64,000 nt of DNA, taken from assembly GCA_030452985.1 (NCBI GenBank), contig JAKDLG010000006.1, forward strand, positions 1-64,000. The letters run 5' to 3'. The notes under the pieces were generated by a model. The model was not told where the DNA came from. It saw nothing but the letters and a program-made list of their open reading frames with translations, and searched no databases. The stretch is from Humibacillus sp. Its GTDB lineage: Bacteria > Actinomycetota > Actinomycetes > Actinomycetales > Dermatophilaceae. The position numbers and the translations under genes are program-made. Position 1 is the first letter of the stretch; each line of letters opens with the position of its first letter. Below are positions 4,296 through 23,573 of this stretch, one piece after another.

Positions 4296-7200
4296 ATGAT
4301 GAGCCTGCACAAGCTGACCGCGGGGGACGGGTACACGTACCTGACCCGGCAGGTCGCTGCGGCCGACAGCTCAGAACTGGGCCGGGTCGCACTGGCGGAC
4401 TACTACACCGAGAAGGGCGAACGCCCCGGCACCTGGCTCGGGACCGGCCTGGCCGGCATCGCCGGTGTCGAGGTGGGCGCGGTGGTGTCCGAGGCGCAGA
4501 TGAAGGCGTTGTTCGGGGAGGGGCGCCACCCCGACGCCGACGAGCTTCAGAAGGCGGTCATCGCGGCCGGGGGCACCGTGAAGGTAGCGATCGCTTCTTC
4601 GGCGTTAGGGCGGCCGTTCGCGAAGTACGACGACGAACCGTCGGCGTTCATCACGCAAGTGACCCTGGCGTACCGGCAGTGGAACACCGACCAGGGTCGG
4701 TCGTATGACGCGCCGGTCCCGGCGGAGGAACGCTCCTGGATCCGCTCGACGGTCGGGCGGGAAACCTTCACGGAGCAGTACGGGCGGGCCCCGCTCGATG
4801 ACCGGGAGCTGGCCGGTCACATCGCCCGCTCCTCACGCCCGGCCCGTCTCGCGGTCGCCGGGTACGACCTGACCTTCTCACCGGTGAAGTCGGTGTCGAC
4901 GTTGTGGGCGCTGGCCGCGCCGGAAGACTCCGCGAAGATTGAGGCGGCGCACGAGGCGGCCGTGAAGGACACCATCGCCTGGCTGGAGCGGGAGGTCGCC
5001 TACACCCGGGTCGGCGCCCAAGGGGTGCGTCAGGTTGATGTCACCGGGCTGGTCGCCACCGCCTTCACGCACCGCGACTCCAGGGCCGGGGACCCGGACC
5101 TGCACACCCACGTCGCGGTCTCGAACAAGGTCCAGTCCGCCGGTGAGGGCAAGTGGTTGGCGTTGGACGGGGCGGTGCTGCACCGGGCCGTGGTCGCCGC
5201 GTCCGAGCGGTACAACACCCGCCTCGAACACGAGGTGACCGACCGGCTCGGGGTCACCTTCGCCCCGACCGAGAAGTCCCTGGCGGAGGGCAAGCGGGTC
5301 ATCCGTGAAGTCGTCGGGGTCCCGGCCGAGCTGATCAGGGCCTGGTCCAAGAGGCGCGCGGCCATCGACGTGGTCCGTAAGGAGCTGGCCCGCGACTTCC
5401 AGGCCGACCACGGCCGGCCACCGACCCCGAAAGAGGCGGTCGAGCTGGCCCAGCAGGCGACGCTGGCCACCCGCGAGGCCAAGCACGAACCCCGGTCGTT
5501 GGCCGAGCAGCGCGCCACCTGGGCCGCGCAAGCCGAAGACGTCCTCGGCGGCTCCCGGGCTGTGGAGGCCATGCTGGCCACCGTCACCACCCGGCCCGCG
5601 ACCAAGGCCACCGCCGGCGGCGAGCAGGAGGAACAGCCGGCGGAAGAACTGACCGACACGCAGATCACCGACCTCGCGAAGCGGGCCCTGTACACGGTCC
5701 AGCTCTCGAGGGCGAGGTTCCAGTGGGCCCACGTCTACGCCGAAGCCTCCCGCCTGGCCCGTGGGCTGGACCTGACCGCCGACCTGCTCGACACAACTGT
5801 TGACGCCGTCGTCGCCGAAGCCCTCGGCGAGCAGCGGTCGGTGGCGATCATCCCGCCCGAGTTCGCCGAACTCACCCCCGAGAAGAGCCCCACCGAGACA
5901 GCCACCGAAACCACCGCGAAGGTCACCGAGGGTGCCGAGGAGAGCGCCGACGCCAAAGAGAGCGCGGCCGCGGCAGACACGGAAGCGGGTGGTGATTCCA
6001 CTGGAATCACCCCGGCCGGCTCGCCCGAGAAGCGCGACGGCGGGCCAGGTGTGGAGGCCGTGGTGGAGCCCGCGGTGTTGCGGCGGGCGGACGGGGAGAG
6101 CGTCTACGTCCAGGCCAAGTCCCAGCTGTACACCACGACGGAGATCCTCGACGCTGAGGCGTACCTGGTCACCACCGCCGGGGAGGCCGGTGGGCGGGTG
6201 GTCGATGAGACGACCCTGGGGTTGGCGCTGCTGGAGCAGGCCGCGAACGGGGTCACCCTCAACCCGGGCCAGGTCCAGCTCGTGACGGAGATGGCGACCT
6301 CCGGCGCCCGGCTCCAGCTCGCCCTGGCCCCGGCCGGGTCCGGCAAGACCACCGCCATGAGTGTGCTGTCGAAGGCCTGGACGGACAGTGGTGGGCAGGT
6401 CATCGGGCTGGCTCCCTCAGCCGCGGCCGCGAAAGAGCTCGGAGACGCGACCGGCGGCCAGGCCGACACCCTGGCCCGGCTCACCTACTCGATCCGGACC
6501 GGCGGGTTCATGCCGGACTGGGGCGAAAGCATCGGCCCCGAGACCTTGGTGCTGATTGATGAGGCCGGGATGGCCGGCACCCTCGAGCTGGCGATGGCGA
6601 CCCGGTACGTCACCGCCCGGGGTGGGTCGGTGCGCCTGGTCGGCGATGACCAGCAGCTCGCCGCGATCGCCGCCGGCGGGGCCCTGCGCGATATCGCCGA
6701 AGAAGTCGGCGCCGTCACCCTGTCCGAGCTGATGCGGTTCACCGACCCGGCCGAAGGCGCCGCCACCCTGGCGTTGCGGGCGGGTGACCCTGAAGCGCTC
6801 GGGTTCTACCTCGACCGCGGCCGGGTCCACCAGGCCGACGAGTCGACCGTCGCCGACCAGGTCTTCGAGGCCTGGATGGCCGACACGGATGCGGGCAAGA
6901 CCTGCCTCATGCTCGCCTCCACCAACGACATAGTGACCGACCTCAACGCCCGTGCGCGAGCCCACCGCCTCGCCACCCAACCCGCCCCCGACACCGACCC
7001 TGACGACACTGACGCCGACGACGCCGACGCTGACGCCACCGAGGCTGAGACCGAGGCCGGGGAGCGGCAGGACGGTCAGGGGGGCCGGTGGCGGCCGCGG
7101 TGGCCCGGGCAGGCCAACCGGGAGCAGGCCGAGCGGGAGCAGGCCGCGCAGGATCGGGCCCGGACGGTCGTGCTGGCCTCCGGGCTGGAGGCCTCCGCCG

Positions 7201-10200
7201 GGGACCTGGTCATCACCCGCCGCAACGACCGCCGGCTCGGGATCACCGCCACGGACTGGGTCAAGAACGGGGACCGGTTCACCGTCATCGCGGCGCACCG
7301 GGGCGGGCAGCTGACCGTTCGGCACGCGGCGACGGAGCGGACCATCACCCTGCCCGCGGAGTACGTCGCCGAGCAGGTGGACCTCGGGTACGCGTGCACC
7401 TTCCACGGCGCCCAGGGCGCGACCGTGGACACCAGCCACAGCGCCCTCTCCGGTGGGGAGACCCGCCAGCTGCTCTACGTCGGGATGACCCGCGGCCGCG
7501 AAGCCAACCACGCCTACCTCGCCACCGCCGGCGACGGCGACCCCCACGCCATGATCCGCCCCGAACGGATCAAACCCCCGACCGCCGGGGAAGCCGTCAC
7601 CGAAGTGCTGGCCGTCGACGGGTCGCAACGCTCCGCCACGACGGAGATCCGCCACCAGCACGAGGCCACCACCAAACTGGGCCGGTCCGCGCCCCGATAC
7701 GTCGACGCGCTCGGGGTCGCCGCGACCGAGCTGCTCGGCCCCGAGAAGGTCGCGCAGCTCGAGGCGCACGCGGAGAAGACCCTGCCCGGGCTCACGTCCG
7801 AGCCGGCCTGGGAGGCACTGCGCGGGGAGCTCGCCCTGACCGCCCTGGACGGGACCGACCCCAACGGAGCGTTGACCGCTGCCATTGAGTCGCGGGAGCT
7901 GACGACCGCGCGGGACCGGGCCGCGGTGCTGCACTGGCGCGTCACCGGCGCCCATCCCGGCCCGGTCGGGCCGCTGCCATGGGTTCAAGGCATCCCGCAG
8001 CAGCTGCGGGAGCATCCGACGTGGGGGGTGTACCTGACCGCCCGGGTCGCCCTGGTGGTCACCCACCTCGCCCAGGTTCGTCAGGCCGCGAAGGATCTGG
8101 CCCCCGAAGCGGCGCCCCGGTGGGCGCACCCGATCCTCGCGGACCGGGAGCTGCTCGGGGACGTGCTGGTGTGGCGGGCCGTCACCGGCGTCACCGACAC
8201 CAACGATCAAGGCACCATCCTCGGCGGACCCCACCCGCAGGTCGCGGCCCGACACCACCAGAACACCCTCCAAACCTGCATCGACGCGCTGGTCGCCCGC
8301 GAACAGGCCGGGACCGCCGGCACCCTCTGGCGCCCCGTCATCACCGACCTGACCAACCTCGGCCCGCGGGTGCTGGACGACCCGTACTGGCCGGTCCTGG
8401 ACCGGCGCCTGGACCTGGCCAACGCGGCCGGGTTCGACGTCCCGGCCCTGCTGTCCGAAGCCGCCGGGCAGGGCCCGGTCCCGGACGAGCACCCCGCCTC
8501 CGCGCTCTGGTACCGCCTCGCCCCAACCCTGGCCCCCGCCGCCGCGATGGCCGCCACGGCTGGCTCCGGCGCCACCCGCCTGCGCCCACCCTGGTGCGCC
8601 CTCCTGGTCGCGCACCTGCCCGAGGCCGTGGCGTTGGCGGTGATGACCGACCCGTACTGGCCCGCCCTCGTCGCGGCCGTCCACACCGCCAGCACCCGGG
8701 GCGTCACCCCCGAACAGGTCATCCCCGACGCGATCGCCCTCATCGGCCCCGACCGCATCGGCCAACCCGACGGAGTCGCAGTCTCAGACCTGGCCACCGC
8801 GCTGGCCTGGCGCATCGCCGACCTCACCGAACACCCCGACCACGCCGGGACGGCCCCTGGTAGCGAGGGCGCCACCCCGGACGAGCACGACCTGTTCAAC
8901 GCCGAGGAAGAAGACTTCCTCAACAACCTCGCCCGCGACCACGACGAAACCGAACAAGCCCAACACCCCGACCCCGACGCTGATGCTGGCGACGACGACC
9001 GGGTGGGGCGGCCGGTCCCGACCGCCCCCGCCGACCTGGACGAGCTGGGGCCGGCCCGGGACGAAGACGCACCACCGGACGACGACGAAGCCCCACCCGA
9101 CCCCGCCGACCCGGTCGCCGCAACGACGCCAGCGCCCCTCGAGACCCCCGAGGAGCTGCAACCCACCACCGCGCCCGAGCGGGTCCTGGCCCTGAACACG
9201 GCCGCGATGGACTTCTACGCCACCGCGTACACCGGGTCCGCCGCCGCGGCCTACGTCAAGACTCGATTGGGCACCGACCTTCTCCCCACCGCCACCACCA
9301 CAGGCCCGACCAACAGCACTGACGCCACTGACACCTCTGAGACCAGAACGCCGACGCCGCTGGAGCAGGGCCGGTTCGCGGTCGGGTACGCACCCGCCGG
9401 GTGGACCACCCTGGTCGACCACCTCAAGACCGACCCCGCCATATCAGCGACCGACGCCGAGCTGGTCGACGCCGGACTGGCCGCCTACACCCGCCGCGGC
9501 ACCACCATCGACCTCTTCCGCGACCGCCTCATCTTCGGCCTGCACAACACCGACCGCGACCTGGTCGGGTTCATCGGCCGCGCAGCACCCAACGCCGACA
9601 CCCCCGGTGAGAACGGGTACCGGATCCCGAAGTACCTCAACACCCCCGACACGGCCGTGTTCAGCAAGGGCACGATCCTGTTCGGCGCCCCCGAAACTTC
9701 TGACCTGCGCGCCGCCGGCGCGACGTTCGTGCGGGTCGAAGGGCCGCTCGACGCGATCGCGGTCACCCTCGCCGGGAACGCCGCCCACGTCGGCGTCGCC
9801 CCCCTCGGGACCGCGCTCACGGACCACCAGGCCGACCAGCTCGCCGTCCCCACCCCCGGCACCAACCTGACCGGACCCGGAGTTGGACAGGGCGCCGGAC
9901 AGGGTGCCGGGCCGCGAGTGTTGGTGGCCACCGACAACGACCCCGCCGGCCGCAAAGCCGCCGAAGCCGACTACTGGAAACTCACCGCCCGCGGCGCCGA
10001 CCCCCGGCAGCTGCTCACCCCCGACGCAAACGACCCCGCCGAGCTCTACCAAACCAACCCGCAGATGCTGGCCACCATGCTCACCCTTGGCGAGCAGGCC
10101 CCCTCCCTGGCGCAGTCCCTCATCGACACCCGCATCACCGCCTGGGGCGCCGACCTGGACAAGCAATGGGCCCACGCCCGGCTCGGCGCCGCCCGGTCCT

Positions 10201-10634
10201 GCGCCGGCATCATCGCCGCCCTCCCGCCCGAGCAGTGGGACGACCAAGTCACCTACACCGCCAACCGGGTCGGCGACGAGGCCGTGCAGATGGTCTACAC
10301 CGAAGTCATCGCCGCCGCCATCAACTACGACACCAGCGGGCAACACCACCCCCCACCCGCCGAGCAAGGCGCCCAAGCCATCAAGCTCGCCGACATCGCC
10401 GCTCGCCTCGACCGACTCGAAGCCTCCGCGGCCATCAACCGGAAGGCCCGCCTCGATGCGGTCAAGACCCTGGCCGGCACCGTCCACAACACCAGCACCA
10501 AGCCGCAGGATCCCGCGACCGAGGCAGCACGACAGGCCGAGAAACGCCGACGCGAGGAACAACGACGACGCGACGACCAACGCCGCTACGACACCCGCCA
10601 CGACGGACCCGCCCGCGGCCCATCCATCCACTGA
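4296..10634 (+). CDS. MobF-type TrwC/TraI relaxase fused to RecD-like helicase and C-terminal DnaG/Toprim-like primase module
   Basis: 2112 aa. Relaxase signature SRPARLAVAGYDLTFSPVKSVSTLWAL...AFTHRDSRAGDPDLHTHVAVSN; Walker A LAPAGSGKTTAMS; C-terminal helicase ACTFHGAQGATVD...LYVGMTRGREANH; primase-like FRDRLIFGLHNTDRDLVGFIGRA...PKYLNTPDTAVFSKGTILFG and Toprim-like VRVEGPLDAIAVT...VLVATDNDPAGRKA. Confidence 0.93.
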   Translation: MMSLHKLTAGDGYTYLTRQVAAADSSELGRVALADYYTEKGERPGTWLGTGLAGIAGVEVGAVVSEAQMKALFGEGRHPDADELQKAVIAAGGTVKVAIASSALGRPFAKYDDEPSAFITQVTLAYRQWNTDQGRSYDAPVPAEERSWIRSTVGRETFTEQYGRAPLDDRELAGHIARSSRPARLAVAGYDLTFSPVKSVSTLWALAAPEDSAKIEAAHEAAVKDTIAWLEREVAYTRVGAQGVRQVDVTGLVATAFTHRDSRAGDPDLHTHVAVSNKVQSAGEGKWLALDGAVLHRAVVAASERYNTRLEHEVTDRLGVTFAPTEKSLAEGKRVIREVVGVPAELIRAWSKRRAAIDVVRKELARDFQADHGRPPTPKEAVELAQQATLATREAKHEPRSLAEQRATWAAQAEDVLGGSRAVEAMLATVTTRPATKATAGGEQEEQPAEELTDTQITDLAKRALYTVQLSRARFQWAHVYAEASRLARGLDLTADLLDTTVDAVVAEALGEQRSVAIIPPEFAELTPEKSPTETATETTAKVTEGAEESADAKESAAAADTEAGGDSTGITPAGSPEKRDGGPGVEAVVEPAVLRRADGESVYVQAKSQLYTTTEILDAEAYLVTTAGEAGGRVVDETTLGLALLEQAANGVTLNPGQVQLVTEMATSGARLQLALAPAGSGKTTAMSVLSKAWTDSGGQVIGLAPSAAAAKELGDATGGQADTLARLTYSIRTGGFMPDWGESIGPETLVLIDEAGMAGTLELAMATRYVTARGGSVRLVGDDQQLAAIAAGGALRDIAEEVGAVTLSELMRFTDPAEGAATLALRAGDPEALGFYLDRGRVHQADESTVADQVFEAWMADTDAGKTCLMLASTNDIVTDLNARARAHRLATQPAPDTDPDDTDADDADADATEAETEAGERQDGQGGRWRPRWPGQANREQAEREQAAQDRARTVVLASGLEASAGDLVITRRNDRRLGITATDWVKNGDRFTVIAAHRGGQLTVRHAATERTITLPAEYVAEQVDLGYACTFHGAQGATVDTSHSALSGGETRQLLYVGMTRGREANHAYLATAGDGDPHAMIRPERIKPPTAGEAVTEVLAVDGSQRSATTEIRHQHEATTKLGRSAPRYVDALGVAATELLGPEKVAQLEAHAEKTLPGLTSEPAWEALRGELALTALDGTDPNGALTAAIESRELTTARDRAAVLHWRVTGAHPGPVGPLPWVQGIPQQLREHPTWGVYLTARVALVVTHLAQVRQAAKDLAPEAAPRWAHPILADRELLGDVLVWRAVTGVTDTNDQGTILGGPHPQVAARHHQNTLQTCIDALVAREQAGTAGTLWRPVITDLTNLGPRVLDDPYWPVLDRRLDLANAAGFDVPALLSEAAGQGPVPDEHPASALWYRLAPTLAPAAAMAATAGSGATRLRPPWCALLVAHLPEAVALAVMTDPYWPALVAAVHTASTRGVTPEQVIPDAIALIGPDRIGQPDGVAVSDLATALAWRIADLTEHPDHAGTAPGSEGATPDEHDLFNAEEEDFLNNLARDHDETEQAQHPDPDADAGDDDRVGRPVPTAPADLDELGPARDEDAPPDDDEAPPDPADPVAATTPAPLETPEELQPTTAPERVLALNTAAMDFYATAYTGSAAAAYVKTRLGTDLLPTATTTGPTNSTDATDTSETRTPTPLEQGRFAVGYAPAGWTTLVDHLKTDPAISATDAELVDAGLAAYTRRGTTIDLFRDRLIFGLHNTDRDLVGFIGRAAPNADTPGENGYRIPKYLNTPDTAVFSKGTILFGAPETSDLRAAGATFVRVEGPLDAIAVTLAGNAAHVGVAPLGTALTDHQADQLAVPTPGTNLTGPGVGQGAGQGAGPRVLVATDNDPAGRKAAEADYWKLTARGADPRQLLTPDANDPAELYQTNPQMLATMLTLGEQAPSLAQSLIDTRITAWGADLDKQWAHARLGAARSCAGIIAALPPEQWDDQVTYTANRVGDEAVQMVYTEVIAAAINYDTSGQHHPPPAEQGAQAIKLADIAARLDRLEASAAINRKARLDAVKTLAGTVHNTSTKPQDPATEAARQAEKRRREEQRRRDDQRRYDTRHDGPARGPSIH
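5991..6011. repeat. 21-bp perfect palindrome GGTGATTCCACTGGAATCACC inside relaxase gene
   Basis: Read directly. Confidence 0.85.
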
Positions 10635-11885: not shown

Positions 11886-11914
11886 GGGCGGTGATTCCAG
11901 TGGAATCACCGCCC
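11886..11914. repeat. 29-bp perfect palindrome GGGCGGTGATTCCAGTGGAATCACCGCCC
   Basis: Read directly. Core shared with palindromes at 3126-3150 and 5991-6011. Confidence 0.85.
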
Positions 11915-11979: not shown

Positions 11980-12930
11980 CTACCCAGCTCCGACCCTCCG
12001 CGTCGCGGCGCGGAGGTGCGTGCTCAGGGGTGCGCCGCGACGCCACGGGCCGAGGACGGCAATGGCTACGGCACCCCACACCAGAACCACAGGAAGGCCG
12101 ACCATCGGCGCGGTGAGGTTGTGGACGCTCTGGTCACTCGAACCGAGGAGGACCGGGATTACCGTCCAGGCGTTGACCGCGCCGTGAGCCACCGCAGACG
12201 GGATTACCGAGCCAGAGCGCAGCCGGAGCCACCCGAGGAAGGTCCCGAGCCCAACGCAGAAGAGGATGAAGAGCCCGATGCCCAGGACAGGGTTGGTCTC
12301 GGGGCCGTACTCGTAGCCCTTAATGATTAGGGGGGCGTGCCAGGCGCCCCAAAGCACCCCGGTGATGAGGTGAGCCTGAATCCGACCTCGCGTCATGAGG
12401 TGCGGCAGCAGCCAGCCTCGCCAACCGCACTCCTCGCCTAACGCGAGGGCGGCGCTGAGCGTGATCGAGGCCAGGAGGGCCTGGACGAGGGCGAGGAGCA
12501 CGAACTCTCTCGGTCCGAGGCCGTGCCCGGCGGTCCCTGAACGGGCCATGACGAACCGTGCCCCGGAGAGGCCGGTGAGGTCTAGCCGGAACCAACCGGT
12601 CGCGGCACCGAGAACGGTCGCGGCGGCGGTCACCGTGACGACGGTGGACAGGCCGATCAGGGAGTTGCGCGCGAGGACCGCGGGGCCCGACCCCAGCCCC
12701 AGGCCGACGCGCTCACGCCAGTCGCCACCGGTCACGAGGCGAGTTACTGCCAACGATGCGAGGGCGGGTGCGAACATGACGGCCGCGAGCGTGGCCGAGC
12801 CGGCCGTGGAGGCCAGGGGGACACCACCGACGACAAGCACGAGCGCCTCAACCCCCCACGCCAGCCCGAACGCCACCACAAGGAAGACGACCAGCGGCGG
12901 AGCCGAGGGAAAGCGCGGCGTCAGGCTCAC
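11980..12930 (-). CDS. CPBP (CAAX/Abi-type) intramembrane metalloprotease
   Basis: Multi-TM protein with EECGWRGWLLPHL and HLITGVLWGAWHAPLI motifs. Confidence 0.88.
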   Translation of the reverse strand: MSLTPRFPSAPPLVVFLVVAFGLAWGVEALVLVVGGVPLASTAGSATLAAVMFAPALASLAVTRLVTGGDWRERVGLGLGSGPAVLARNSLIGLSTVVTVTAAATVLGAATGWFRLDLTGLSGARFVMARSGTAGHGLGPREFVLLALVQALLASITLSAALALGEECGWRGWLLPHLMTRGRIQAHLITGVLWGAWHAPLIIKGYEYGPETNPVLGIGLFILFCVGLGTFLGWLRLRSGSVIPSAVAHGAVNAWTVIPVLLGSSDQSVHNLTAPMVGLPVVLVWGAVAIAVLGPWRRGAPLSTHLRAATRRVGAG

Positions 12931-13376
12931 CGGCTCGAGGCCCGTCGTATCGTCTGGGCGAGCTCGCGAGCTAGCGGGGTGTCGATGACGACGACGTCAT
13001 AGAAGTTGTCGGTCAGCTCGAGACGCAGGGATAGCTCGGCCCCGCTGGTGAGAAAGAAGCCACGCCCCCAGTCTCCGTCGAAGGTGCCGGCCGAGATGGT
13101 GCCGAACTGCCCGCCCCCGACCCGCAGCGCGCCCGTCTGGGGCATGGCGAATCCGGGCAGCAGGTCCGCGGTGTCGATCTGGCTTATCGGGATGGTCAGG
13201 ACCCGGGTTAGAGCGACCAACCCGAAGACGCCGCGAGGGCGGATCCGGACCTCGTCCTCCCTGACTTTGACCTGGGCGAGGTCGTGGGTGCGGGCCTGGC
13301 GCAGGCTCAGCACCACAATGAGGCCGACGACGGCAACGATGAACAGCGCCGGCGCGATGGATGATGAGTGACCCAT
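12927..13376 (-). CDS. small membrane-anchored, PH-like domain protein
   Basis: One N-terminal TM (ALFIVAVVGLIVVLSL) then a beta-rich domain. Overlaps the CPBP gene start and abuts sdpB. Confidence 0.55.
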   Translation of the reverse strand: MGHSSSIAPALFIVAVVGLIVVLSLRQARTHDLAQVKVREDEVRIRPRGVFGLVALTRVLTIPISQIDTADLLPGFAMPQTGALRVGGGQFGTISAGTFDGDWGRGFFLTSGAELSLRLELTDNFYDVVVIDTPLARELAQTIRRASSR

Positions 13377-14387
13377 CTATTCCGCTTCCTTAGTTGCGTG
13401 CACCAAGACCCGACCAGGGTTGGCGCGCACGAGGTGGGTCGGTGGCGACGCGGCAGGCTGCGCCGAGGGTCGACGACGCCACCGTGGCAGTGAGAGGCCG
13501 TGTAGGAGCGAGCGCACGTCCTCGGTCGGGACGAGGTAAAGCAGTAGAGCACCTGCCATCGCGAGGTCGAAACTGATGAGCCCCATTGTCAGCGCGATGG
13601 TGTCGTGGAACACCAGGCCAAGCAGGAGCAGGACCCGTTTGGCGGGGCGTCCGAGGACAATGGCGATACCGAGTGCGAACTCGATTGCCAACGAGCCCCA
13701 GGTTAGGGTCACGACGAGGACCGGGCTGCTCGTGAGGAGGTTGGTCAGCGGCTTGAGGTACGGCGGCGCCCCGAAGATCGAGTTGTTAAACCAGTAGAAC
13801 ATCGCGGACCCGTCGGCCCACTCGGCTACTCCGAGCTTGGAGATCGCCGCCTGCAGGTAGAGCCCGGCGACCTGGAGGGCGATGAGGCCAAGGGCAGCGT
13901 AGGCCAGGACCCAACGCGTTGGGGACGCCGTGTGGATGTCCTCGTGGGCGACCTGCCAGTGCCACCGGCGGCGGTCGGTGAGCAGGAGCGGGACGAGCAG
14001 CAGGGTGAGCACGGCAGTGATCTGGTCTCCGCCGTCCTGCACGGTCAGGTTGGAGATGAAGCTCCACGAAACCCACCAGTGCAGTACTGCGCTCCAGCGG
14101 GGGAGCCACCCTGAAGCGGCCCAGGCCAGTACGACCACGGCGACCCACAGGGCGAGCGATCGGTGGGTCTGCGGGACGACGCACCACAAGGCCGCACGGG
14201 CGGGGCCGATGCACGCCGGTGGCGTGACGGACCCGACGATGGGGGATAGCAGGTAGCGCTCGGGGGTGGCGAGCAGCGTCCCGAGCGTTCCCAGGGCCAG
14301 GAGGGTTCGGGCTGTCCCGACGAGCGGGGTCCACGGCACTCGCTCAGCCCGTACGAGGAACCAGCGTCCGAGCCGTTCGATCAGCAT
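13377..14387 (-). CDS. sdpB-like: SdpB-like (HTTM-type) membrane protein, antimicrobial peptide maturation
   Basis: 336 aa, multi-TM. WWVSWSFISNLTVQDGGDQITAVLTLLLVPLLLTDRRRWHW...GLYLQAAISKLGVAEWADGSAMFYWFNNSIFG resembles the SdpB/HTTM family. ATG overlaps the sdpA-like stop (ATGCTGA). Confidence 0.85.
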   Translation of the reverse strand: MLIERLGRWFLVRAERVPWTPLVGTARTLLALGTLGTLLATPERYLLSPIVGSVTPPACIGPARAALWCVVPQTHRSLALWVAVVVLAWAASGWLPRWSAVLHWWVSWSFISNLTVQDGGDQITAVLTLLLVPLLLTDRRRWHWQVAHEDIHTASPTRWVLAYAALGLIALQVAGLYLQAAISKLGVAEWADGSAMFYWFNNSIFGAPPYLKPLTNLLTSSPVLVVTLTWGSLAIEFALGIAIVLGRPAKRVLLLLGLVFHDTIALTMGLISFDLAMAGALLLYLVPTEDVRSLLHGLSLPRWRRRPSAQPAASPPTHLVRANPGRVLVHATKEAE

Positions 14388-15016
14388 CGGACGTCCAGCC
14401 GCACGACCCGGGAGGGCAGGGCGGTCCCTGAGCCCCGCCAGGCCCAGGGCAGGACCTGCTGTTCGGCGATGCCAAGCTCGCCACACAGCTCGGTGTGTGG
14501 GGTGACGTTGACGACTGGCACCGGATGCGCATCGGCCGCGAGACAGGTGGCCGGGGTGGACTGACATGCAACGAATGAGGAGGTCGGGACCTGGGACTCG
14601 AGGATGGCCAGAGCGGTCCCCTCGGAGCGTTGGGTCCGTGAAAGACCCATGAGCTGTGACGGCACTGCCAGAGAAGGGTCGTGTAGCGGAGCCCACTCGG
14701 CACCGGGCAAGGACTGCCGCCATGGCACCGGGTACACCGTTCGGGGTGACGCGGTGAAGAACGCCCAGCCTTCGGGCAGGAACTCCTTGGTGATGGTGGC
14801 GTGTTGTGAGGAAAACTCGATGGCGTTCGGTGGCAGGTTGGCCTCTAGCACGTAGAGGGCCGCGAGGACAGCGATTGTGCCGATGAACAGCACCCGAACC
14901 CCAAGACGACCGATCAGGTCCGCGGTGTAGGCCGAGTGAACGCCGTCCACGTCGGAGGACTGCGGACCATCGATCAGAGATGGACGGTTGCCGCCGGGAG
15001 CAGTGTGGATGCTCAT
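14381..15016 (-). CDS. sdpA-like: SdpA-like protein
   Basis: N-terminal TM followed by FLPEGWAFFTASPRTVYPVPW, matching the SdpA-family pattern. Lies between SdpC-like and SdpB-like genes. Confidence 0.8.
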   Translation of the reverse strand: MSIHTAPGGNRPSLIDGPQSSDVDGVHSAYTADLIGRLGVRVLFIGTIAVLAALYVLEANLPPNAIEFSSQHATITKEFLPEGWAFFTASPRTVYPVPWRQSLPGAEWAPLHDPSLAVPSQLMGLSRTQRSEGTALAILESQVPTSSFVACQSTPATCLAADAHPVPVVNVTPHTELCGELGIAEQQVLPWAWRGSGTALPSRVVRLDVRC

Positions 15017-15119
15017 GGGATCGAGCGCGGGTCGCCCCCGTCGGTGCCTCGAGCGGTTTGGCTCGACTGGCACCGGTCGGATCCCCGCCGACCGACGGGG
15101 CCGACCTCGCGCACCGCGG

Positions 15120-15800
15120 TCACCGGACCGCGAGCCCTTGAGCCATGGTGTTGACGAAGCGGTCCGTTGCGACCTGCGTCGAGCCAGCCACCCCGGTCAC
15201 GGCACACGGCGGACAGATCAGGAAGATCAGAATGATGATGGCGACCGCGCCGTAGACGGCCGCGGCCGCGTAGTAGTAGTCATAGTTGATCGTCTGGACG
15301 TAGTTGACGACGCCGGAATCGGGAGCCGCCGCCCGCGTCGTGGTCTTTCCAAGGCTGCTCAGGGCGGTCTGGGCGTTGCGTAGGGTTGCTGAGTACTGGT
15401 CTTGCGTCATCTGTCGCTGCATCGAGGTCTTCGCCACGGTGCCGAGGTCGGAAAGGCCGGCCGCAACCTGCACCCGGTTGCCGCTCTGCACCCGCTGCGC
15501 GAACGAGGCGGCGAAGGCGGCGTGGTGGTCGAGGTAGGAGTGCACCTCGGTGCGGACCGTCGCCATCTGCGGGGTCATCTTGGCCTCCGGGCGGTGGGCT
15601 CCTACGAGCCGTACGGCGGCCGGGCCTTGGCCGAACATGATAGCGTCGGCCAGCTGGCCAGCGGTGTAGCGGGCGGAACTCGCGGACGGACTGGCGGTCG
15701 CCGACTGACTGTAAATCAATCCGGTGACAATGGCGAGCAGAGCCGCCAAATACACAGCCGTAACGTGACGATAGCCGCGATTCTTAGGAACTTCTGACAT
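15120..15800 (-). CDS. sdpC-like: SdpC-like antimicrobial (killing factor) precursor
   Basis: Signal peptide; YTAGQLADAIMFGQGPAAVRLVG (SdpC-family FGQGPxA motif); C-terminal hydrophobic segment with a CxxC pair: YYYAAAAVYGAVAIIILIFLICPPCAVTG. Confidence 0.85.
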   Translation of the reverse strand: MSEVPKNRGYRHVTAVYLAALLAIVTGLIYSQSATASPSASSARYTAGQLADAIMFGQGPAAVRLVGAHRPEAKMTPQMATVRTEVHSYLDHHAAFAASFAQRVQSGNRVQVAAGLSDLGTVAKTSMQRQMTQDQYSATLRNAQTALSSLGKTTTRAAAPDSGVVNYVQTINYDYYYAAAAVYGAVAIIILIFLICPPCAVTGVAGSTQVATDRFVNTMAQGLAVR

Positions 15801-16495: not shown

Positions 16496-17470
16496 CTCCT
16501 GACATGGTGCGATATTCGGTGATGGGGTCAGGGCACGGTTTCGATCTCGTAGCGTTAATCAGGTTGCTGCCGGGGTAAGCGAGATCTGGTGGCACTCGAG
16601 TGCTCGCACGGCTGCCCGATGGCGTTGGTGGCGCGGCGGGTGGGTTGTAGATGGACACGTCAGATGACCATGGTGACGACACTTAAGGTGTAGATGACCA
16701 TTGCTCGATCCAGGCCGCCCTTGTCGGCGCGTTGGAGGTGTCAACGTGGAGCGCGCGCAGCGCAGCGAGCACGAACGACGTTGACACTGACGAGCGACGA
16801 CAGACGATGGCCGTCGAAGATTGGCCTTGCAACGTCATCACTGTGAGCGTCCACTCGTCGTCAATTCGCGTGTCCGTCTACATGGGTAGCGGGTCGAGCC
16901 GGATTGTCGGGACGCCGTCGACGCTCGGGTCGACGTCGCCGCTTGAGGTGGGGACCTGCCGGATCAGGGTGTGCGCTTCGCGGTTAGCGCTGGCGTACCC
17001 GGAGTGGTCGCGTAGCTCCCCGCGCGAGGGTGGTCGCGGTGTTGAACGCGGCGATCCGGATCGTGTGGGTGATCAGCTTGGTTTCGGCGTCGAGGACCTG
17101 CTGGCCGGGGTTGACCATGTTGAGCGGGAGCCGGGCTGGGGTAGCCTGGTGCGCGGCTTCGACGCCGCTCAGGGCGGCCTCGACGTAGCGCAGGTTGGTG
17201 GTGATCGCGTCGTGGGCCTCGTTCGTGAGCAGGGCCGGGGTACCCGGGGTCCGGGAGTGGGCCGCCAGCAGCGCGGCATCGGTGGCCGCGGCCGCGCGCT
17301 CGTGTCAGCGCGGGCGGTGAGCACGCTCTGGTAGGCCTTGCGTTTCGCCGGGTTGGGCACCAACCGGTGCGGGTCATCGTCGGTGACGGCGTAGCTGTCG
17401 TGGGAGTCGAGGTCGAAGCGCATCCGGGCGTAGCGGAAGTAGTTCTACTGCCGCCACCGTGAGCCGATAG
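16496..17470 (-). pseudogene. decayed 3' portion of a second copy of the 20994-23573 IS (transposase pseudogene)
   Basis: Nucleotide similarity to 20999-21720, from the shared end CTCCTGACAT (16496-16505) through the MRFDLDSHDSYAVTDDDPHRLVPNPAKRKAYQSVL region (cf. MHFDLDSHDSYTVTDDDPDRSVPNPARKRTYQQVL). Frameshifted and interrupted by the 16646-16882 insert. Confidence 0.88.
16646..16882. mobile_element. 237-bp MITE-like element with 14-bp TIRs and 5-bp target duplication TGGGT
   Basis: Left end TGTAGATGGACACG, right end (reverse complement) TGTAGACGGACACG; TGGGT at 16641-16645 and 16883-16887. The flanks rejoin in alignment with the intact IS copy. Confidence 0.85.
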
Positions 17471-18064: not shown

Positions 18065-19438
18065 ATGAGATTTCAGGTTCGACGCCGAGTTGCTGTTTTG
18101 GCTGGTCTCTCGTTCGCGCTTCTTCTACCATTTGCCGGCCCGTCGTTGGCCAACACGGAGTCTGCCGGTAAGCCTGATCCGGGCTACAACTGGACCGACC
18201 CACCGGCAGACATCGAGCAGTGGCGGCGCGAGAATCTCGTCACAGAAGTAGCGCAACGTCTCGTCCCGGACCCAGAGGAAACCGGTATTGGCTACGCGGG
18301 AATGGTCGTGTCGGGTGAACGCCTAAGCATCACCATGTGGTGGCACGGGGAACTACCTGCGACAGTCCGCAAGGTCGTCGAGGACGCCAACGACGGGGTT
18401 TCCGTGCAGGTTCGCCCTGCTGAGCGCTCTATTAGTGACATTCGAAGGGCAGTGAGCCGGATTGTGGCGCCGGCCAGAATTGACCCCCGGATCCTCTCAG
18501 CAAATATCGAAGTACTTGGGACGGGGGAGGAGCAGGATGGGTCAGGCATCTCGGTTCGGTACGATGCGATCGACTCCTCGCAGGCGTTGCCGGCCCCCGA
18601 TGAGGTTCGACGCGTCCTCGAGCTGGTAGCTGGCGTCCCGGTCTTAGCCGCCAACTTAGGATCCAATGCCGTTTGGGCGTCTCGTCAAGACGACACCTCT
18701 CCCTGGTATGGCGGTGGTATGATTCAGAACTCCGGGGGGAAATGCTCTATCGGCTTCGCCGGGAGCAGAAATTCGGACGGCGGGTCCGTTATGCTAAGTG
18801 CAGCTCATTGTAGTGACTGGGGCCAGAATTCCTCGTATTGGTACGATGGAACGGGAAGCGAGCTTGTTGCAACTTGGCCGAATATCAGTATCGTGAGCGC
18901 TCTAGACTCAATGTCCATGAAGACACAGGGCGGCTCATTCGCGAGGGTTTTTGGCGGCGGTTGGAGCACCCAGTACGGCGGATACCGCTACACGCTTGAT
19001 GTTATTGGCTCATTTGCGAATCATGTGGGTAATAAAGTTTGTGCGTCTGGGGCGAATTCGGGTGAACACTGCAACCTCACGATTACAGGTACTGCTACCG
19101 CCGCGTGCGGACCCAACGGAAATATTGCCTGCCCTGCCTGGGAGGCCCAGAATCCTAGCAACGATTACGCCGTGGTTTCTGGCGACAGCGGTGGGCCGCT
19201 CTATCAAAACACCGGTCAAGGTAACGTCAGGGCGCAGGGTATTATCTCGTATACGGGCTCCTACCGCGGGAACGCAACCTTCTTCAATTGCACAGGCCTC
19301 GGTGGTACCCGTATCCGGTTTGGAGGATCAGGAGTCGCTTGCTCGGATGTAGTTGGTTACATTGACGTCTCGCGGGTTTTGAGTCAGCGGGGTATTACGT
19401 TGAAGAACTCAGGCACCTTGAGGCTCACAGCTTCCTGA
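18065..19438 (+). CDS. secreted S1 (trypsin-like) serine protease with N-terminal pro-domain
   Basis: Signal peptide; catalytic motifs LSAAHC and SGDSGGPLY; about 200-aa N-terminal pro-region. Confidence 0.88.
   Translation: MRFQVRRRVAVLAGLSFALLLPFAGPSLANTESAGKPDPGYNWTDPPADIEQWRRENLVTEVAQRLVPDPEETGIGYAGMVVSGERLSITMWWHGELPATVRKVVEDANDGVSVQVRPAERSISDIRRAVSRIVAPARIDPRILSANIEVLGTGEEQDGSGISVRYDAIDSSQALPAPDEVRRVLELVAGVPVLAANLGSNAVWASRQDDTSPWYGGGMIQNSGGKCSIGFAGSRNSDGGSVMLSAAHCSDWGQNSSYWYDGTGSELVATWPNISIVSALDSMSMKTQGGSFARVFGGGWSTQYGGYRYTLDVIGSFANHVGNKVCASGANSGEHCNLTITGTATAACGPNGNIACPAWEAQNPSNDYAVVSGDSGGPLYQNTGQGNVRAQGIISYTGSYRGNATFFNCTGLGGTRIRFGGSGVACSDVVGYIDVSRVLSQRGITLKNSGTLRLTAS
18170..18277 (+). 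repeat. left arm of 108-bp inverted repeat (partner 19842-19949)
   Basis: 106/108 nt identical to the reverse complement of 19842-19949. Confidence 0.93.
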
Positions 19439-20102
19439 GCGGACCCCGTACTACATCATCAAACTTTGGCTTCGCCTCAAGGACCGGGATGCCTGCGACG
19501 TCCTCGAGCACCTTATGTGCGCGCTCGTGGTCGACCAAGCCGGCTACGGAGCGGTCGTAAGTGATCCAAAGGCCCGTACCCTCAAGCACCGCACCCACAC
19601 CCAGCACCTTTATGCCTTGCTGTGCAAGGCGGGGATCTGCCGGCCCGGACGGAAGCACCCGACTGATAGCTTCCTGGAGTTCAGTGTTGTTGTACGGGGC
19701 CGGTGATATCTCGACGTCTACGCCGTCTGTGCTGTTGTCAGCAACGGCCCGGACCGCCGGAGGCACCGGACCCTTCCACCAGAGCCAAACCTTCAGTTGA
19801 TCTCCGGACACCTTCAAACCTGTGTACCCACTGCCGGGTCTCTCTGGGTCCGGGACGAGACGCTGCGCTACTTCTGTGACGAGATTCTCGCGCCGCCACT
19901 GCTCGATGTCTGCCGGTGGGTCGGTCCAGTTGTAGCCCGGGTCAGGCTTGGACACGGACGAAACCGTTGAAGGGTTCGCCTCTGCCGGGCCCGTCGCTTG
20001 GTGTCCTAGCACTGTGCTGGATGGGGTAAAAGAGCTGGCTGCTCCGCAACCTGCTACGGCCACGATGCTCACCAGTGCACCAACTACTCGCCTGTCGGTC
20101 AT
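19425..20102 (-). CDS. lipoprotein paralogous to the pro-domain of the 18065-19438 protease
   Basis: Lipobox VAVAGCG, then KPDPGYNWTDPPADIEQWRRENLVTEVAQRLVPDPE identical to the protease N-terminus, with full-length weaker similarity to the pro-region and no catalytic domain. Confidence 0.85.
   Translation of the reverse strand: MTDRRVVGALVSIVAVAGCGAASSFTPSSTVLGHQATGPAEANPSTVSSVSKPDPGYNWTDPPADIEQWRRENLVTEVAQRLVPDPERPGSGYTGLKVSGDQLKVWLWWKGPVPPAVRAVADNSTDGVDVEISPAPYNNTELQEAISRVLPSGPADPRLAQQGIKVLGVGAVLEGTGLWITYDRSVAGLVDHERAHKVLEDVAGIPVLEAKPKFDDVVRGPLRKL
19842..19949 (-). repeat. right arm of 108-bp inverted repeat (partner 18170-18277)
   Basis: See partner. Confidence 0.93.
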
Positions 20103-20993
20103 GTCCAGTCCTTCCCACTTTCCCGGGCTCGGCCGCCCGCGCGCATACCACACCTACTACATAAGACGCCGAATCCGCGAGAAACGTTGCATCAGGCGCA
20201 GCACGGTCGTCTCGTATCACTCTGGCACCATCTGGCGCTGCTGGCCTGGCTGCCGCGTCTAACGCTTGCGTCACAAGGATGCTGAAACCCGGTACCCGAT
20301 TCACGATTCTACGACGGCCGATGAGTTCTTGGTCGGTGGCCCGACCGTCCGCTCCGAGAGCGGCCAGCTTCCGACGTTCCCCACAAATCCCATCGGGAGC
20401 ACCCCAGGTGATGTTACGCAGTCCGTAACGCACGATCCTGCAGCGTTGCTACCCAACCCCCCTACCGGGGCCGGGAGGCGTAGGTGTCGAATCATCGGGT
20501 CGAGCCAGACCGGGAGGACGCCGAGGACACGGGCGACCTCGGGCTCGAACAGAAGACGACCCAACGTACGCGCGAACGGGCGGGCCGGCATGGCCACCAT
20601 CATCGCGGCATCCCTACCGTTCCACCGAGAGCGGGCAGGCACTTTCACGGTGGTGGGGGTCGGCTCCGGCGCGGTTCGTCTTGACCGCGGATCTTCGAGA
20701 AGAGAACGTGGTGCTCGTGTCTCAGCTTTCCTACGGTGACCCGGACGGGTTCGGCGTCTATGGCGTCCTGCAGCAGTCCGACGACGGCCTCTTGATTTGT
20801 GCTGACTGTGGGCTCTGCTTCGAACACTTGGGCCTGCACGCGGCCCACGTCCACGACGGCGCCGCCGACTACCGGGTCCGCCACGGGTTGAAGCGGACTC
20901 GCGGGCTCGTCGCGGACAGTGTCCGCGTCAAGCAGGTGCAGAACGGGGCCCGGATCAGCGGTTCACCAGCCGGGCAGGCCCTGGCCCAGGCGC

Positions 20994-23573
20994 CAGGACT
21001 CCTGACATAGCGGCATAGTTGCTGCGGTGTCAGGGAGCGGTTTTGATCTCGTAGCGCAGGGTCAGGTCGGTGCCGGGGTAGCGGGTTTCGGTGGCGGTGA
21101 GGTGCTCGCAGAGTTCCTTGATGGCGGTGGTGGCGCGGCGGGTTGGTAGCGGGTCGAGCCGGATCGTTAGGACGCCCTCGGTGGTGGGGTCGATGTCGCC
21201 GCTGGCGGTGAGGACGTGGCGGATCAGGGTGTGCGCTTCGTCATTTTTGCGGGCGTACCTGGTGTGTAGGCGCAGCTCGCGGGCGAGGGTGGTGGCGGTG
21301 TTGAACGCGGCGATCCGGATGGCGTGGGTCAGCAGTTTGGTTTGCACGTCGAGGACCTGCTGGCCGGGGTTGACCTCGCGCAGCGGCAGCCGCGCCGGGG
21401 TCGCCGCGTGTGCGGCTTCGGCGGTGGTCAGGGCGGCCTCGGCGGTGCGTAGGTCCGCGGTGAGCGCGTCGTGGGCGGCGTTGGTGAGCAGGGTCGGGGT
21501 GCCGGGCGCTGGTGAACGAGCCGCCAGGAGCGCGGCGTCCGCGGCCGCGGTCTGCTGCTGGTGGCAAACCCTGGCGGCGAGCACCTGCTGGTAGGTGCGT
21601 TTACGGGCGGGGTTGGGCACCGACCGGTCCGGGTCGTCGTCGGTGACGGTGTAGCTGTCGTGGGAGTCCAGGTCGAAGTGCATCCGCGCGTAGCGGAAGT
21701 AGTTCTCCTGGCGCCACCTCGAGCCCATCCGGTAGATGATCTCGGCCGGGGGTAGGTCGGTGCGGGTGGTCAGGATGTGGATCTGACGCAGCCCGCCACC
21801 GTCTTCTGTGCCGTTCTCGGTGGTGTGTTTCTTGGAGTGTTTGGTGACCGGGACAGCGAGGGTGATCTGCCGCATCGTAAAGACCTGCGGCTCGCCCTGA
21901 GCAGTGTCCCGGGTTGCTCCCTCGGTAGCGTTTTCGGTTTGGCTCAGGGGCAGCGTGGTGGTGGTGTCCGCGACCCGCCAGGCATGGGTGAGGCCGGTCT
22001 CGTCGGTGAAGTCAAGGTCGGTGAACTGGTCGGGGTCGATGTCGGGGGTGGGGCCCTTGCGCCAGGTCAGCACGTCGAACCCGGCCTCGTCCAGGTGTTT
22101 GAACAGGGCCGGGGACCAGCCGCCGCGGTCGAACCCGACCAGGACGCGGCGGTTGTCCCCGACCGCGGCCCGTAGCTGCGGCATCAGGCGGCGTAGCTCA
22201 CCGGCCAGCGACGCTCCGGGCTGGGCCATCACGACCAGGACCGGGTCGCCGGCCGCGTCGGACACCCACGTTTCGAGCGTGGCCGGGGCGGGGAACCGCA
22301 GCCGGGCCAGGTGGGTCTTGCCGACCTTGCGACCGCCTTGGTAGGCGCGGACATGTCCATCGACGTACAACACGATCCCCACCGACCCGGCCTCACCATC
22401 GCCGCCGCTGCCGTCACTTCCGGTGGGTCGGGCCAGGTGGGTGGCGGCCATGGCCGCGATCAGCCGGTCCGCGTGGCCGGCGGCGGCGAGCAGGCCCAGC
22501 TTGCGGCGGATGGTCTTGACCTCCGGGGCCCGGTCCATCCCGAGGACCCGACCCAACGCGGTCGGGTCGATCCGGGTGGCGCCCTCGGCGCGGGGCTGGC
22601 CGGCCAGGGTGCGTAGCACGGCCTCGAGCAGGACCGTGTGAAGGCCGTAGAACCCGTTCGGCAACGCCCCGTACACCCGGCCCGCGCAGGCCAGTAGCCC
22701 GGTCGCTTCCAGCGCGGGCAGGGCCAGCAAGAGCCCGGCCAACGGGACCCGGCCCGCGGGCGTGAACACCGGCGCCGCGTGCTCGATCAGCCCGAACCGG
22801 GCCGCTACCCGCTCCGCGGACCGGTCCACCGGCTGCGCCAACACCGGCAGCATCGGCGTGTTGATGTCCGCACGCGCGACCTCACCCAGCGCCTCCTGCG
22901 CGCTCTCCTCCACCGCCTCGTCGATGGACTCGTCCATGGTGGTGTCGGACTGCGTGGTGTCGTCCATGGCCTGCACCGGGGTGGCGGGTAGGGCGCGGCG
23001 AACGCTGTCGGTCGAGACCCCGACCGCGGCCGCGATCGCCCGCAGGCTCGCTCCGGCCGTACGGCGGGCCCGGATGCGGGCTACCACGGCCGGCGTCAAC
23101 GCCGAGGGGCCCTTGGGGCCGGTCTTGGCCGGGACGAGCCCGCCCGCGCCGGCCACGTCCATCGCCTGGCCCCACCGGCGCAACGTGTCCGGGTCGACAC
23201 CGAACCCGGCGGCCACCTCGAACGCCCGGGCGGCCTTGATCGTCACCAGCTGCACTGCGGCCAACCGCCGGCAGGCGTGGTCCCCGGGCTGCCAGGCCAT
23301 CACCAGCTCGCCGCGCACGAACACCCGCCCGCCGTCGGTGTCCTCCACGAGCGCGGCGGCCGCCCCGATCAGCACCGCGTCCGGGTGCGGGACCACCGGC
23401 AGCGGCGCTTGGGCTGTCATGACCGCCATCAAACCAAACCTCCGAAACCCGACTGCTGAGACCGCACTAATTATCTCACATTTCGGGCCTGTAGACGACC
23501 GGAAGAATGATCGGATCCCCCCTGGGAACAACGGAATCCCCGCGAGGGCTACAGAACTATGTCAGGAGCCCTG
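20994..23573 (-). mobile_element. insertion sequence, 17-bp TIR CAGG(A/G)CTCCTGACATAG, 6-bp TSD AGGCGC
   Basis: Ends 20994-21010 and 23557-23573 are inverted with one mismatch; AGGCGC at 20988-20993 and 23574-23579. Confidence 0.9.
21030..23429 (-). CDS. transposase of that IS (N-terminal helix-turn-helix, DDE-like C-terminal region; family not assigned)
   Basis: About 800 aa, within the TIR-bounded element. HTH-like ...ARRTAGASLRAIAAAVGVSTDSVRRAL; MGSRWRQENYFRYARMHFDLDSHDSY. Confidence 0.82.
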   Translation of the reverse strand: MAVMTAQAPLPVVPHPDAVLIGAAAALVEDTDGGRVFVRGELVMAWQPGDHACRRLAAVQLVTIKAARAFEVAAGFGVDPDTLRRWGQAMDVAGAGGLVPAKTGPKGPSALTPAVVARIRARRTAGASLRAIAAAVGVSTDSVRRALPATPVQAMDDTTQSDTTMDESIDEAVEESAQEALGEVARADINTPMLPVLAQPVDRSAERVAARFGLIEHAAPVFTPAGRVPLAGLLLALPALEATGLLACAGRVYGALPNGFYGLHTVLLEAVLRTLAGQPRAEGATRIDPTALGRVLGMDRAPEVKTIRRKLGLLAAAGHADRLIAAMAATHLARPTGSDGSGGDGEAGSVGIVLYVDGHVRAYQGGRKVGKTHLARLRFPAPATLETWVSDAAGDPVLVVMAQPGASLAGELRRLMPQLRAAVGDNRRVLVGFDRGGWSPALFKHLDEAGFDVLTWRKGPTPDIDPDQFTDLDFTDETGLTHAWRVADTTTTLPLSQTENATEGATRDTAQGEPQVFTMRQITLAVPVTKHSKKHTTENGTEDGGGLRQIHILTTRTDLPPAEIIYRMGSRWRQENYFRYARMHFDLDSHDSYTVTDDDPDRSVPNPARKRTYQQVLAARVCHQQQTAAADAALLAARSPAPGTPTLLTNAAHDALTADLRTAEAALTTAEAAHAATPARLPLREVNPGQQVLDVQTKLLTHAIRIAAFNTATTLARELRLHTRYARKNDEAHTLIRHVLTASGDIDPTTEGVLTIRLDPLPTRRATTAIKELCEHLTATETRYPGTDLTLRYEIKTAP

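What the first reader, a model, noticed from the sequence alone, without database searches (positions are those of the whole stretch)
11980..15800. Complete SDP-like (SdpC-SdpA-SdpB) peptide toxin operon on an actinobacterial mobile island
Seen: three adjacent minus-strand genes. The first is a signal-peptide protein with the MFGQGPAAVRLVG motif and a hydrophobic C-terminal segment carrying CPPC. The second is a TM protein with EGWAFFTASPRTVYPVPW. The third is a multi-TM HTTM-type protein overlapping it (ATGCTGA). Established: in Bacillus subtilis, SdpC is the precursor of a hydrophobic, disulfide-containing killing peptide and needs SdpA and SdpB for maturation. Inference: this island encodes a contact-free or cannibalism-type membrane-active peptide, with the mature toxin likely drawn from the YYYAAAAVYGAVAIIILIFLICPPCAVTG region.
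Basis: partly seen in the sequence, partly recalled or inferred. Interest (0 to 1): 0.85.

Follow-up and report, generated by a model that had tools for sequence, protein, structure and literature searches.

The report
SDP-type toxin operon with unusual immunity
This is a genuine relative of the Bacillus "cannibalism" toxin operon, sitting next to a conjugation gene in an actinobacterium; its toxin and processing genes belong to a known family, but the usual immunity gene is missing and two other membrane-protein genes sit in its place.

Summary
The three genes are real and the reading as SdpC-SdpA-SdpB is correct. SdpA and SdpB pass curated family cut-offs. SdpC matches TIGR04032 over its whole length but scores well below that cut-off (41 against 99 bits); all 35 homologues scanned match the same model. 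The same five-gene order recurs in Microbispora bryophytorum at only 29-50% protein identity. The usual immunity family, SdpI, was not found anywhere in the assembly (94% complete), so I propose the PH-CPBP pair as immunity (about 0.55). AlphaFold gives a confident helical precursor scaffold that includes the C-terminal tail helix, with residues 164-205 as the low-confidence, looped-out segment; this matches the length and position of the Bacillus toxin. CPPC is not the Bacillus disulfide, and the closest relatives have no cysteine there. SdpB aligns with human vitamin-K carboxylase: a lysine present in all 56 covered SdpBs falls on Lys218, recalled as that enzyme's catalytic base. SDP islands in actinobacteria are already published. 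New variant of a known kind; toxicity and immunity are untested.

The parts
15120..15800 (-). SdpC-like toxin precursor, 226 aa
   Evidence: TIGR04032 E 1.4e-10 over profile 4-170 of 172, 41 bits against cut-off 99; 35 of 35 homologues match the same model; 32% identity to the Microbispora homologue
15690..15800 (-). N-terminal signal peptide, about residues 1-37 (cleavage site not tested)
   Evidence: positively charged start, hydrophobic stretch 13-31, then SATA-S
15339..15680 (-). conserved helical pro-domain, about residues 41-154 (G59, S106, G107 nearly invariant)
   Evidence: AlphaFold pLDDT mostly 86-97 from residue 41 to 140, 78 at 141-150; conservation
15186..15311 (-). predicted toxin segment, residues 164-205, with one hydrophobic span (178-196) and CPPC
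   Evidence: low-confidence segments 164-186 and 192-205; position matches B. subtilis SDP C141-S182 of 203 aa (PMC6818787)
15123..15185 (-). conserved C-terminal tail helix, residues 206-226, probably removed in maturation
   Evidence: helix 205-223 with pLDDT 88-90; recurring pattern RxFVxxVAxxLA in relatives
14381..15073 (-). SdpA: one N-terminal TM helix and a domain with four nearly invariant cysteines (170, 177, 197, 230); start GTG 15073 or ATG 15016
   Evidence: PF17418 1.1e-22, TIGR04034 5.2e-22; cysteines in 53-56 of 58 rows; model
13377..14387 (-). SdpB, multi-TM protein with the GGCX/HTTM core; start overlaps the SdpA stop by 7 nt
   Evidence: TIGR04033 3.6e-69; profile matches human gamma-carboxylase at 1.3e-6
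13836..13838 (-). codon of SdpB Lys184, which aligns with Lys218 of GGCX
   Evidence: alignment; K in 56 of 56 covered sequences
12927..13376 (-). small membrane-anchored protein with possible PH-domain affinity, candidate immunity partner
   Evidence: TM 7-25; weak bPH matches, E 0.053 for it and 0.014 for relatives; homologue in the same place in Microbispora
11980..12930 (-). CPBP (Abi/CAAX-type) intramembrane protease, candidate immunity protein; GTG start overlaps the preceding stop by 4 nt
   Evidence: PF02517 6.6e-17 over cut-off; EExxxR (EECGWR), WH and HxxxN (HGAVN) motifs intact; subfamily tree
4296..10634 (+). TrwC/MOBF-type relaxase-helicase next to the operon
   Evidence: PF08751 1.8e-90, PF13604 8.8e-60 on its first 901 residues

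Best explanation
A five-gene SDP-family antibacterial peptide operon. SdpC is exported by a signal peptide; a helical pro-domain together with a C-terminal tail helix holds a hydrophobic segment of about 42 residues, which SdpA and SdpB help release as a membrane-active peptide against competitors. The membrane-anchored PH-like protein and the CPBP protease encoded behind SdpB protect the producer in place of SdpI. Shown here: gene identities, gene order, homologue conservation, precursor architecture as a model. Inferred from B. subtilis: SdpAB-dependent release and membrane killing. Inferred only: the immunity role (about 0.55), target range and regulation. The SDP identity alone stands at about 0.95.
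For: Family matches for all three core genes. SdpC, SdpA and SdpB occur together in nearly all of about 57 SdpB loci, mostly as C-A-B in actinobacteria. AlphaFold gives a scaffold plus tail helix around a low-confidence segment of SDP-like size that corresponds to SDP C141-S182 in a 203-aa precursor. SdpA-SdpB-PH-CPBP are overlapped or abutting. The same order occurs in Microbispora despite 29-50% identities. No SdpI (PF13630) was found in the own assembly, while the search rings in 5 of 14 controls. SdpI lies beside SDP in 12 distinct loci and CPBP in 5, never both. Four of the 5 SDP-linked CPBPs fall in one CPBP subfamily that holds 2 of 20 background CPBPs (Fisher 0.005). A CPBP-PH pair with a 4-nt overlap also exists without SDP (L122). 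CPBP (Abi) proteins have been implicated in bacteriocin self-immunity (cited in PMC8692603).
Against: SdpC scores far below the curated TIGR04032 cut-off. The full PH-CPBP arrangement was found in only one other genome. SdpI/CPBP exclusivity is what chance would also give at these counts. CPBP enrichment depends on the density assumed (p 0.003 to 0.1). The PH assignment is weak. Many actinobacterial SDP loci show no recognisable immunity gene nearby. CPBP proteins have other roles, and PH proteins of a leaderless bacteriocin act in export (PMC8657885). About 6% of the genome is missing, so SdpI could lie there.
Confidence: 0.6

Rival explanations
1. The CPBP protease and PH-like protein serve maturation or export of the peptide (for example the C-terminal cut), not immunity.
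For: CPBP proteins are proteases with intact motifs. Bacterial PH-domain proteins DdE and DdF are needed to export enterocin DD14 (PMC8657885).
Against: Most SDP loci, including SdpC relatives in Micromonospora (L055) and Asanoa (L056), have SdpCAB without PH-CPBP, so neither gene is generally needed for maturation.
Confidence: 0.2
2. PH-CPBP is a general envelope-stress or resistance cassette that lies beside the SDP operon without a dedicated function in it.
For: A CPBP-PH pair occurs without SDP (L122); PH relatives lie beside TetR and alpha/beta-hydrolase genes on Streptomyces plasmids; the CPBP subfamily is not exclusive to SDP loci.
Against: Zero-gap and 4-nt overlaps with SdpB, and the same order conserved in a second, strongly diverged genome.
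Confidence: 0.2
3. A decayed or silent SDP locus that makes no active toxin.
For: SdpC diverges from the family model; no promoter consensus was recognised upstream; transposase remnants lie upstream.
Against: All five frames are open with coding-type GC3; nearly invariant SdpA and SdpB residues are kept; sigma-70 consensus scans say little in actinobacteria.
Confidence: 0.08

Closest known systems
Bacillus subtilis sdpABC-sdpRI (SDP toxin)
   Same: SdpA, SdpB and SdpC families; secreted precursor with an internal hydrophobic toxin segment near the C-terminus followed by a tail of about 20 residues
   Different: Order C-A-B instead of A-B-C; no SdpI or SdpR; no CX5C pair at the start of the toxin segment; PH and CPBP genes in the operon
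B. subtilis yitPOM-yitQ (YIT toxin; PMC6818787)
   Same: Paralogous production genes with a toxin segment unrelated in sequence, and an immunity protein unrelated to SdpI
   Different: YitQ is a different membrane protein and is encoded upstream; no PH or CPBP gene was described there
Microbispora bryophytorum SDP locus
   Same: Identical five-gene order SdpC-A-B-PH-CPBP; same subtype of toxin segment without the CX5C pair
   Different: SdpB about 50%, SdpA 45%, CPBP 38%, SdpC 32%, PH 29% identity; a DCC/DUF393 gene follows; no CPPC
Brevibacterium aurantiacum sdpABC genomic island (PMC5719810)
   Same: Predicted SDP operon on a horizontally acquired island in an actinobacterium
   Different: The passages read describe no PH-CPBP pair; sequences were not compared here
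Human vitamin K-dependent gamma-carboxylase GGCX (PDB 9bvk and others)
   Same: About 130 residues of the SdpB TM core align, with an SdpB-invariant Lys at GGCX Lys218
   Different: SdpB is 336 aa against 758 and lacks the rest of the enzyme; no carboxylase activity is known for SdpB

Membership tests
SDP (SdpABC) peptide system | SdpB (TIGR04033) | tested here: met
   233.4 bits against cut-off 178.4, E 3.6e-69
SDP (SdpABC) peptide system | SdpA (TIGR04034, PF17418) | tested here: met
   78.5 bits against 53.1; 80.9 against 25
SDP (SdpABC) peptide system | SdpC precursor (TIGR04032) | tested here: inconclusive
   Significant over the full length (1.4e-10) but 41.3 bits against cut-off 99.2; relatives in SDP operons match the same model, 35 of 35
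SDP (SdpABC) peptide system | signal peptide plus C-terminal hydrophobic toxin segment and tail | tested here: met
   hydropathy peaks 13-31 and 178-196; AlphaFold layout
SDP (SdpABC) peptide system | disulfide of B. subtilis type (CX5C at the start of the toxin) | tested here: not met
   only CPPC at -31/-28; a CX4-6C pair is present in about 10 of 57 homologues, so it does not define the family
SDP (SdpABC) peptide system | SdpI immunity | tested here: not met
   PF13630 not found in the own assembly, 94% complete; also absent beside many other SDP operons, so it does not define the family
SDP (SdpABC) peptide system | SdpAB-dependent release of an inhibitory peptide | not testable with these tools
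   needs expression and mass spectrometry
CPBP (Abi/CAAX) protease | PF02517 with catalytic Glu/His motifs | tested here: met
   62 bits against 22.4; motifs EECGWR, WH, HGAVN in the sequence
bacterial PH-domain protein | bPH fold | tested here: inconclusive
   best E 0.053 for this protein, 0.014 for relatives; structure not predicted
vitamin K-dependent carboxylase (HTTM core) | TM core with the catalytic Lys | tested here: met
   E 1.3e-6 to GGCX; K184 on Lys218; 56 of 56
vitamin K-dependent carboxylase (HTTM core) | full-length enzyme and carboxylation activity | not testable with these tools
   only about 130 residues align; activity needs biochemistry

The most novel reading that the evidence does not exclude
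SdpB is a quinol-using enzyme of the vitamin-K-carboxylase fold whose invariant Lys184 acts as the base, working with the cysteine-rich, membrane-anchored SdpA on the toxin precursor; and in this operon subtype a PH-CPBP pair, not SdpI, is the immunity system.
Probability: 0.15. Interest if true: 0.8.

Novelty: new variant of a known kind. Interest (0 to 1): 0.48.

Why it matters
SDP-type systems are known mainly from Bacillus. This locus offers a compact test of a different immunity principle (intramembrane protease plus membrane-anchored partner) within the same toxin family. The invariant SdpB lysine aligned with the base of human vitamin-K carboxylase turns the open question of what SdpB does into a single-residue test. 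The precursor model, a conserved scaffold and tail around a hypervariable toxin segment, suggests how the family can change its toxin while keeping its processing machinery.

Tried and rejected
A weak Pfam match of SdpC to Bacillus_HBL (E 0.013) was rejected: far below cut-off, with no support in the fold search. Fold searches of the SdpC and SdpA models against the PDB gave nothing with E under 2; the idea that SdpA is the split-off lumenal domain of GGCX thus found no support. A link between CX4-6C toxins and SdpI was only weakly visible (p 0.04 on a table with non-independent rows). SDP-linked CPBPs as one exclusive clade was rejected: the tree needs 4 changes and shuffles reach that often (154 of 500). 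IMG/VR gave no SdpB relative. PHROGs and PADLOC gave nothing useful. The first SdpB alignment was too diverse for the contig scan. Literature searches found no open paper that joins SdpB with HTTM or that names these NCBI families; subscription papers are not held, so this is not proof of absence.
Full report
WHAT IS THERE. Five minus-strand genes run from 15800 to 11980: SdpC (15120-15800), SdpA (14381-15073), SdpB (13377-14387), a 149-aa protein with one N-terminal membrane helix (12927-13376) and a CPBP intramembrane protease (11980-12930). SdpA and SdpB overlap by 7 nt (ATGCTGA); the fourth gene starts on the base after the SdpB stop; the fifth overlaps the fourth by 4 nt.

FAMILY IDENTITY. 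SdpB scores 233 bits on TIGR04033 (cut-off 178), SdpA 78.5 on TIGR04034 (cut-off 53) and 81 on PF17418 (cut-off 25). SdpC matches TIGR04032 over nearly its whole length at 1.4e-10 but with 41 bits against a cut-off of 99. The below-cut-off score reflects divergence: all 35 SdpC homologues taken from SDP loci match the same model, and the position next to SdpA and SdpB is shared by nearly all loci.

DISTRIBUTION. Among 58 relatives, only the own genome has SdpB over cut-off; in the class, 13 of 395 genomes do. Named relatives include Microbispora, Micromonospora, Asanoa, Streptomyces, Nocardiopsis, myxobacteria and a Sediminibacillus, and plasmids of Streptomyces, Tsukamurella, Curtobacterium, Rhodococcus and Niallia. 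The patchy spread fits horizontal transfer. In the window, a TrwC relaxase, transposases and a resolvase surround the operon; a transposase remnant about 79% identical to the intact copy lies upstream of SdpC. An SDP-like island was reported earlier in Brevibacterium (PMC5719810), so an SDP operon on an actinobacterial island is not new as such.

PRECURSOR. AlphaFold with 35 homologues (mean pLDDT 74, pTM 0.65) gives a confident helical pro-domain and a confident C-terminal helix 205-223; the stretches with pLDDT under 50 are 164-186 and 192-205. In B. subtilis the toxin is C141-S182 of a 203-aa precursor, which leaves a tail of 21 residues (PMC6818787). The same bookkeeping here puts the toxin at about 164-205. 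Low confidence is also what a hypervariable segment would give, so the match in size is suggestive only. The window's cysteines (CPPC, 31 and 28 residues from the end) have no counterpart among the homologues; the B. subtilis-type CX4-6C pair occurs in about 10 of 57, and the closest SdpC relatives (L044, L052, L055, L056) have no cysteine in this region.

MATURATION GENES. A profile of 14 SdpBs matches human vitamin K-dependent gamma-carboxylase structures at E 1.3e-6 over about 130 residues. In the alignment the SdpB motif YLQA..KL..EWADG falls on YFIAGVKKL.ADWVEG of GGCX. Counting along the alignment and comparing the match positions in the two chains (162-288 in 9bvk, 188-314 in the 758-residue chain 13ib), the SdpB lysine falls on GGCX Lys218, which I recall from the literature as the enzyme's catalytic base. 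This Lys (window K184) is present in 56 of 56 covered sequences. SdpB also has two conserved cysteines (C59, C69; 53 of 56 covered), and SdpA four (170, 177, 197, 230). This suggests a quinone-linked chemistry for SdpB, but SDP itself is, to my knowledge, not carboxylated, so the reaction is unknown.

IMMUNITY. SdpI (PF13630) was not found in the assembly, while the same search rings in 5 of 14 control genomes; the assembly is 94% complete, so an SdpI in the missing part is not excluded. Across the collected loci, SdpI lies beside SDP in 12 distinct loci and CPBP in 5 (window, Microbispora, Curtobacterium plasmid, Tsukamurella plasmid, L133), never both; with these counts chance would also give little overlap. 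The background density of CPBP is about 0.1 to 2 per Mb in six genomes, which makes four neighbours in 55 loci unlikely (p 0.003 at 0.7, 0.012 at 1, 0.1 at 2 per Mb). Four of the 5 SDP-linked CPBPs fall in one subfamily that holds 2 of 20 background CPBPs (Fisher 0.005), though the subfamily is not exclusive to SDP and several tree branches are poorly supported. The full five-gene order is conserved in Microbispora bryophytorum at 29% (PH) to about 50% (SdpB) identity. A CPBP-PH pair with a 4-nt overlap also stands alone in L122. CPBP (Abi) proteins have been implicated in bacteriocin self-immunity (cited in PMC8692603), while PH-domain proteins of a leaderless bacteriocin act in export (PMC8657885). 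I therefore favour immunity (about 0.55) over maturation or export (0.2) or a general stress cassette (0.2).

VERDICT. A real, new and divergent member of the SDP family with an unusual immunity end: a new variant of a known kind. What is shown: genes, order, homology, conservation, model. What is inferred: toxicity, processing, immunity.

Noticed in passing
5991-6011 and 11890-11910: The 21-bp palindrome GGTGATTCCA(C/G)TGGAATCACC occurs exactly twice in the 5.5-Mb assembly (up to 2 mismatches allowed), both in this window: inside the relaxase gene and about 70 bp behind the CPBP stop, where it extends to a perfect 29-bp palindrome (11886-11914). Operator, terminator or recombination site unknown.
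   Followed up: partly
18065-19438 and 19425-20153: A predicted secreted protein with the trypsin-type motif GDSGGP (plus strand) and a convergent minus-strand gene share a duplicated N-terminal stretch (SKPDPGYNWTDPPADIEQW...), with a 149-nt inverted repeat of 89%.
   Followed up: no
16573-17468: Degenerate partial copy (74-89% identical in pieces) of the transposase gene at 21030-23531, upstream of SdpC.
   Followed up: no
L036:3740-4312 and 6353-6934: The Curtobacterium plasmid pTCL carries two different SdpC-like precursors around one SdpA-SdpB pair, with a CPBP gene of the window's subfamily.
   Followed up: partly
L038, L041, L044, L045, L055, L126, L127, L128, L136: A DCC/DUF393 thiol-oxidoreductase-like gene recurs beside SdpA-SdpB in about nine loci, and is absent from the window's operon.
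   Followed up: partly
L055 and L056, just behind SdpB: A small GntR-type regulator gene follows SdpB in Micromonospora lupini and Asanoa hainanensis, whose SdpC is close to the window's.
   Followed up: no
L077 and L078: On Streptomyces plasmids a relative of the window's PH-like gene lies between a TetR or HTH regulator and an alpha/beta-hydrolase gene, without SDP genes.
   Followed up: no
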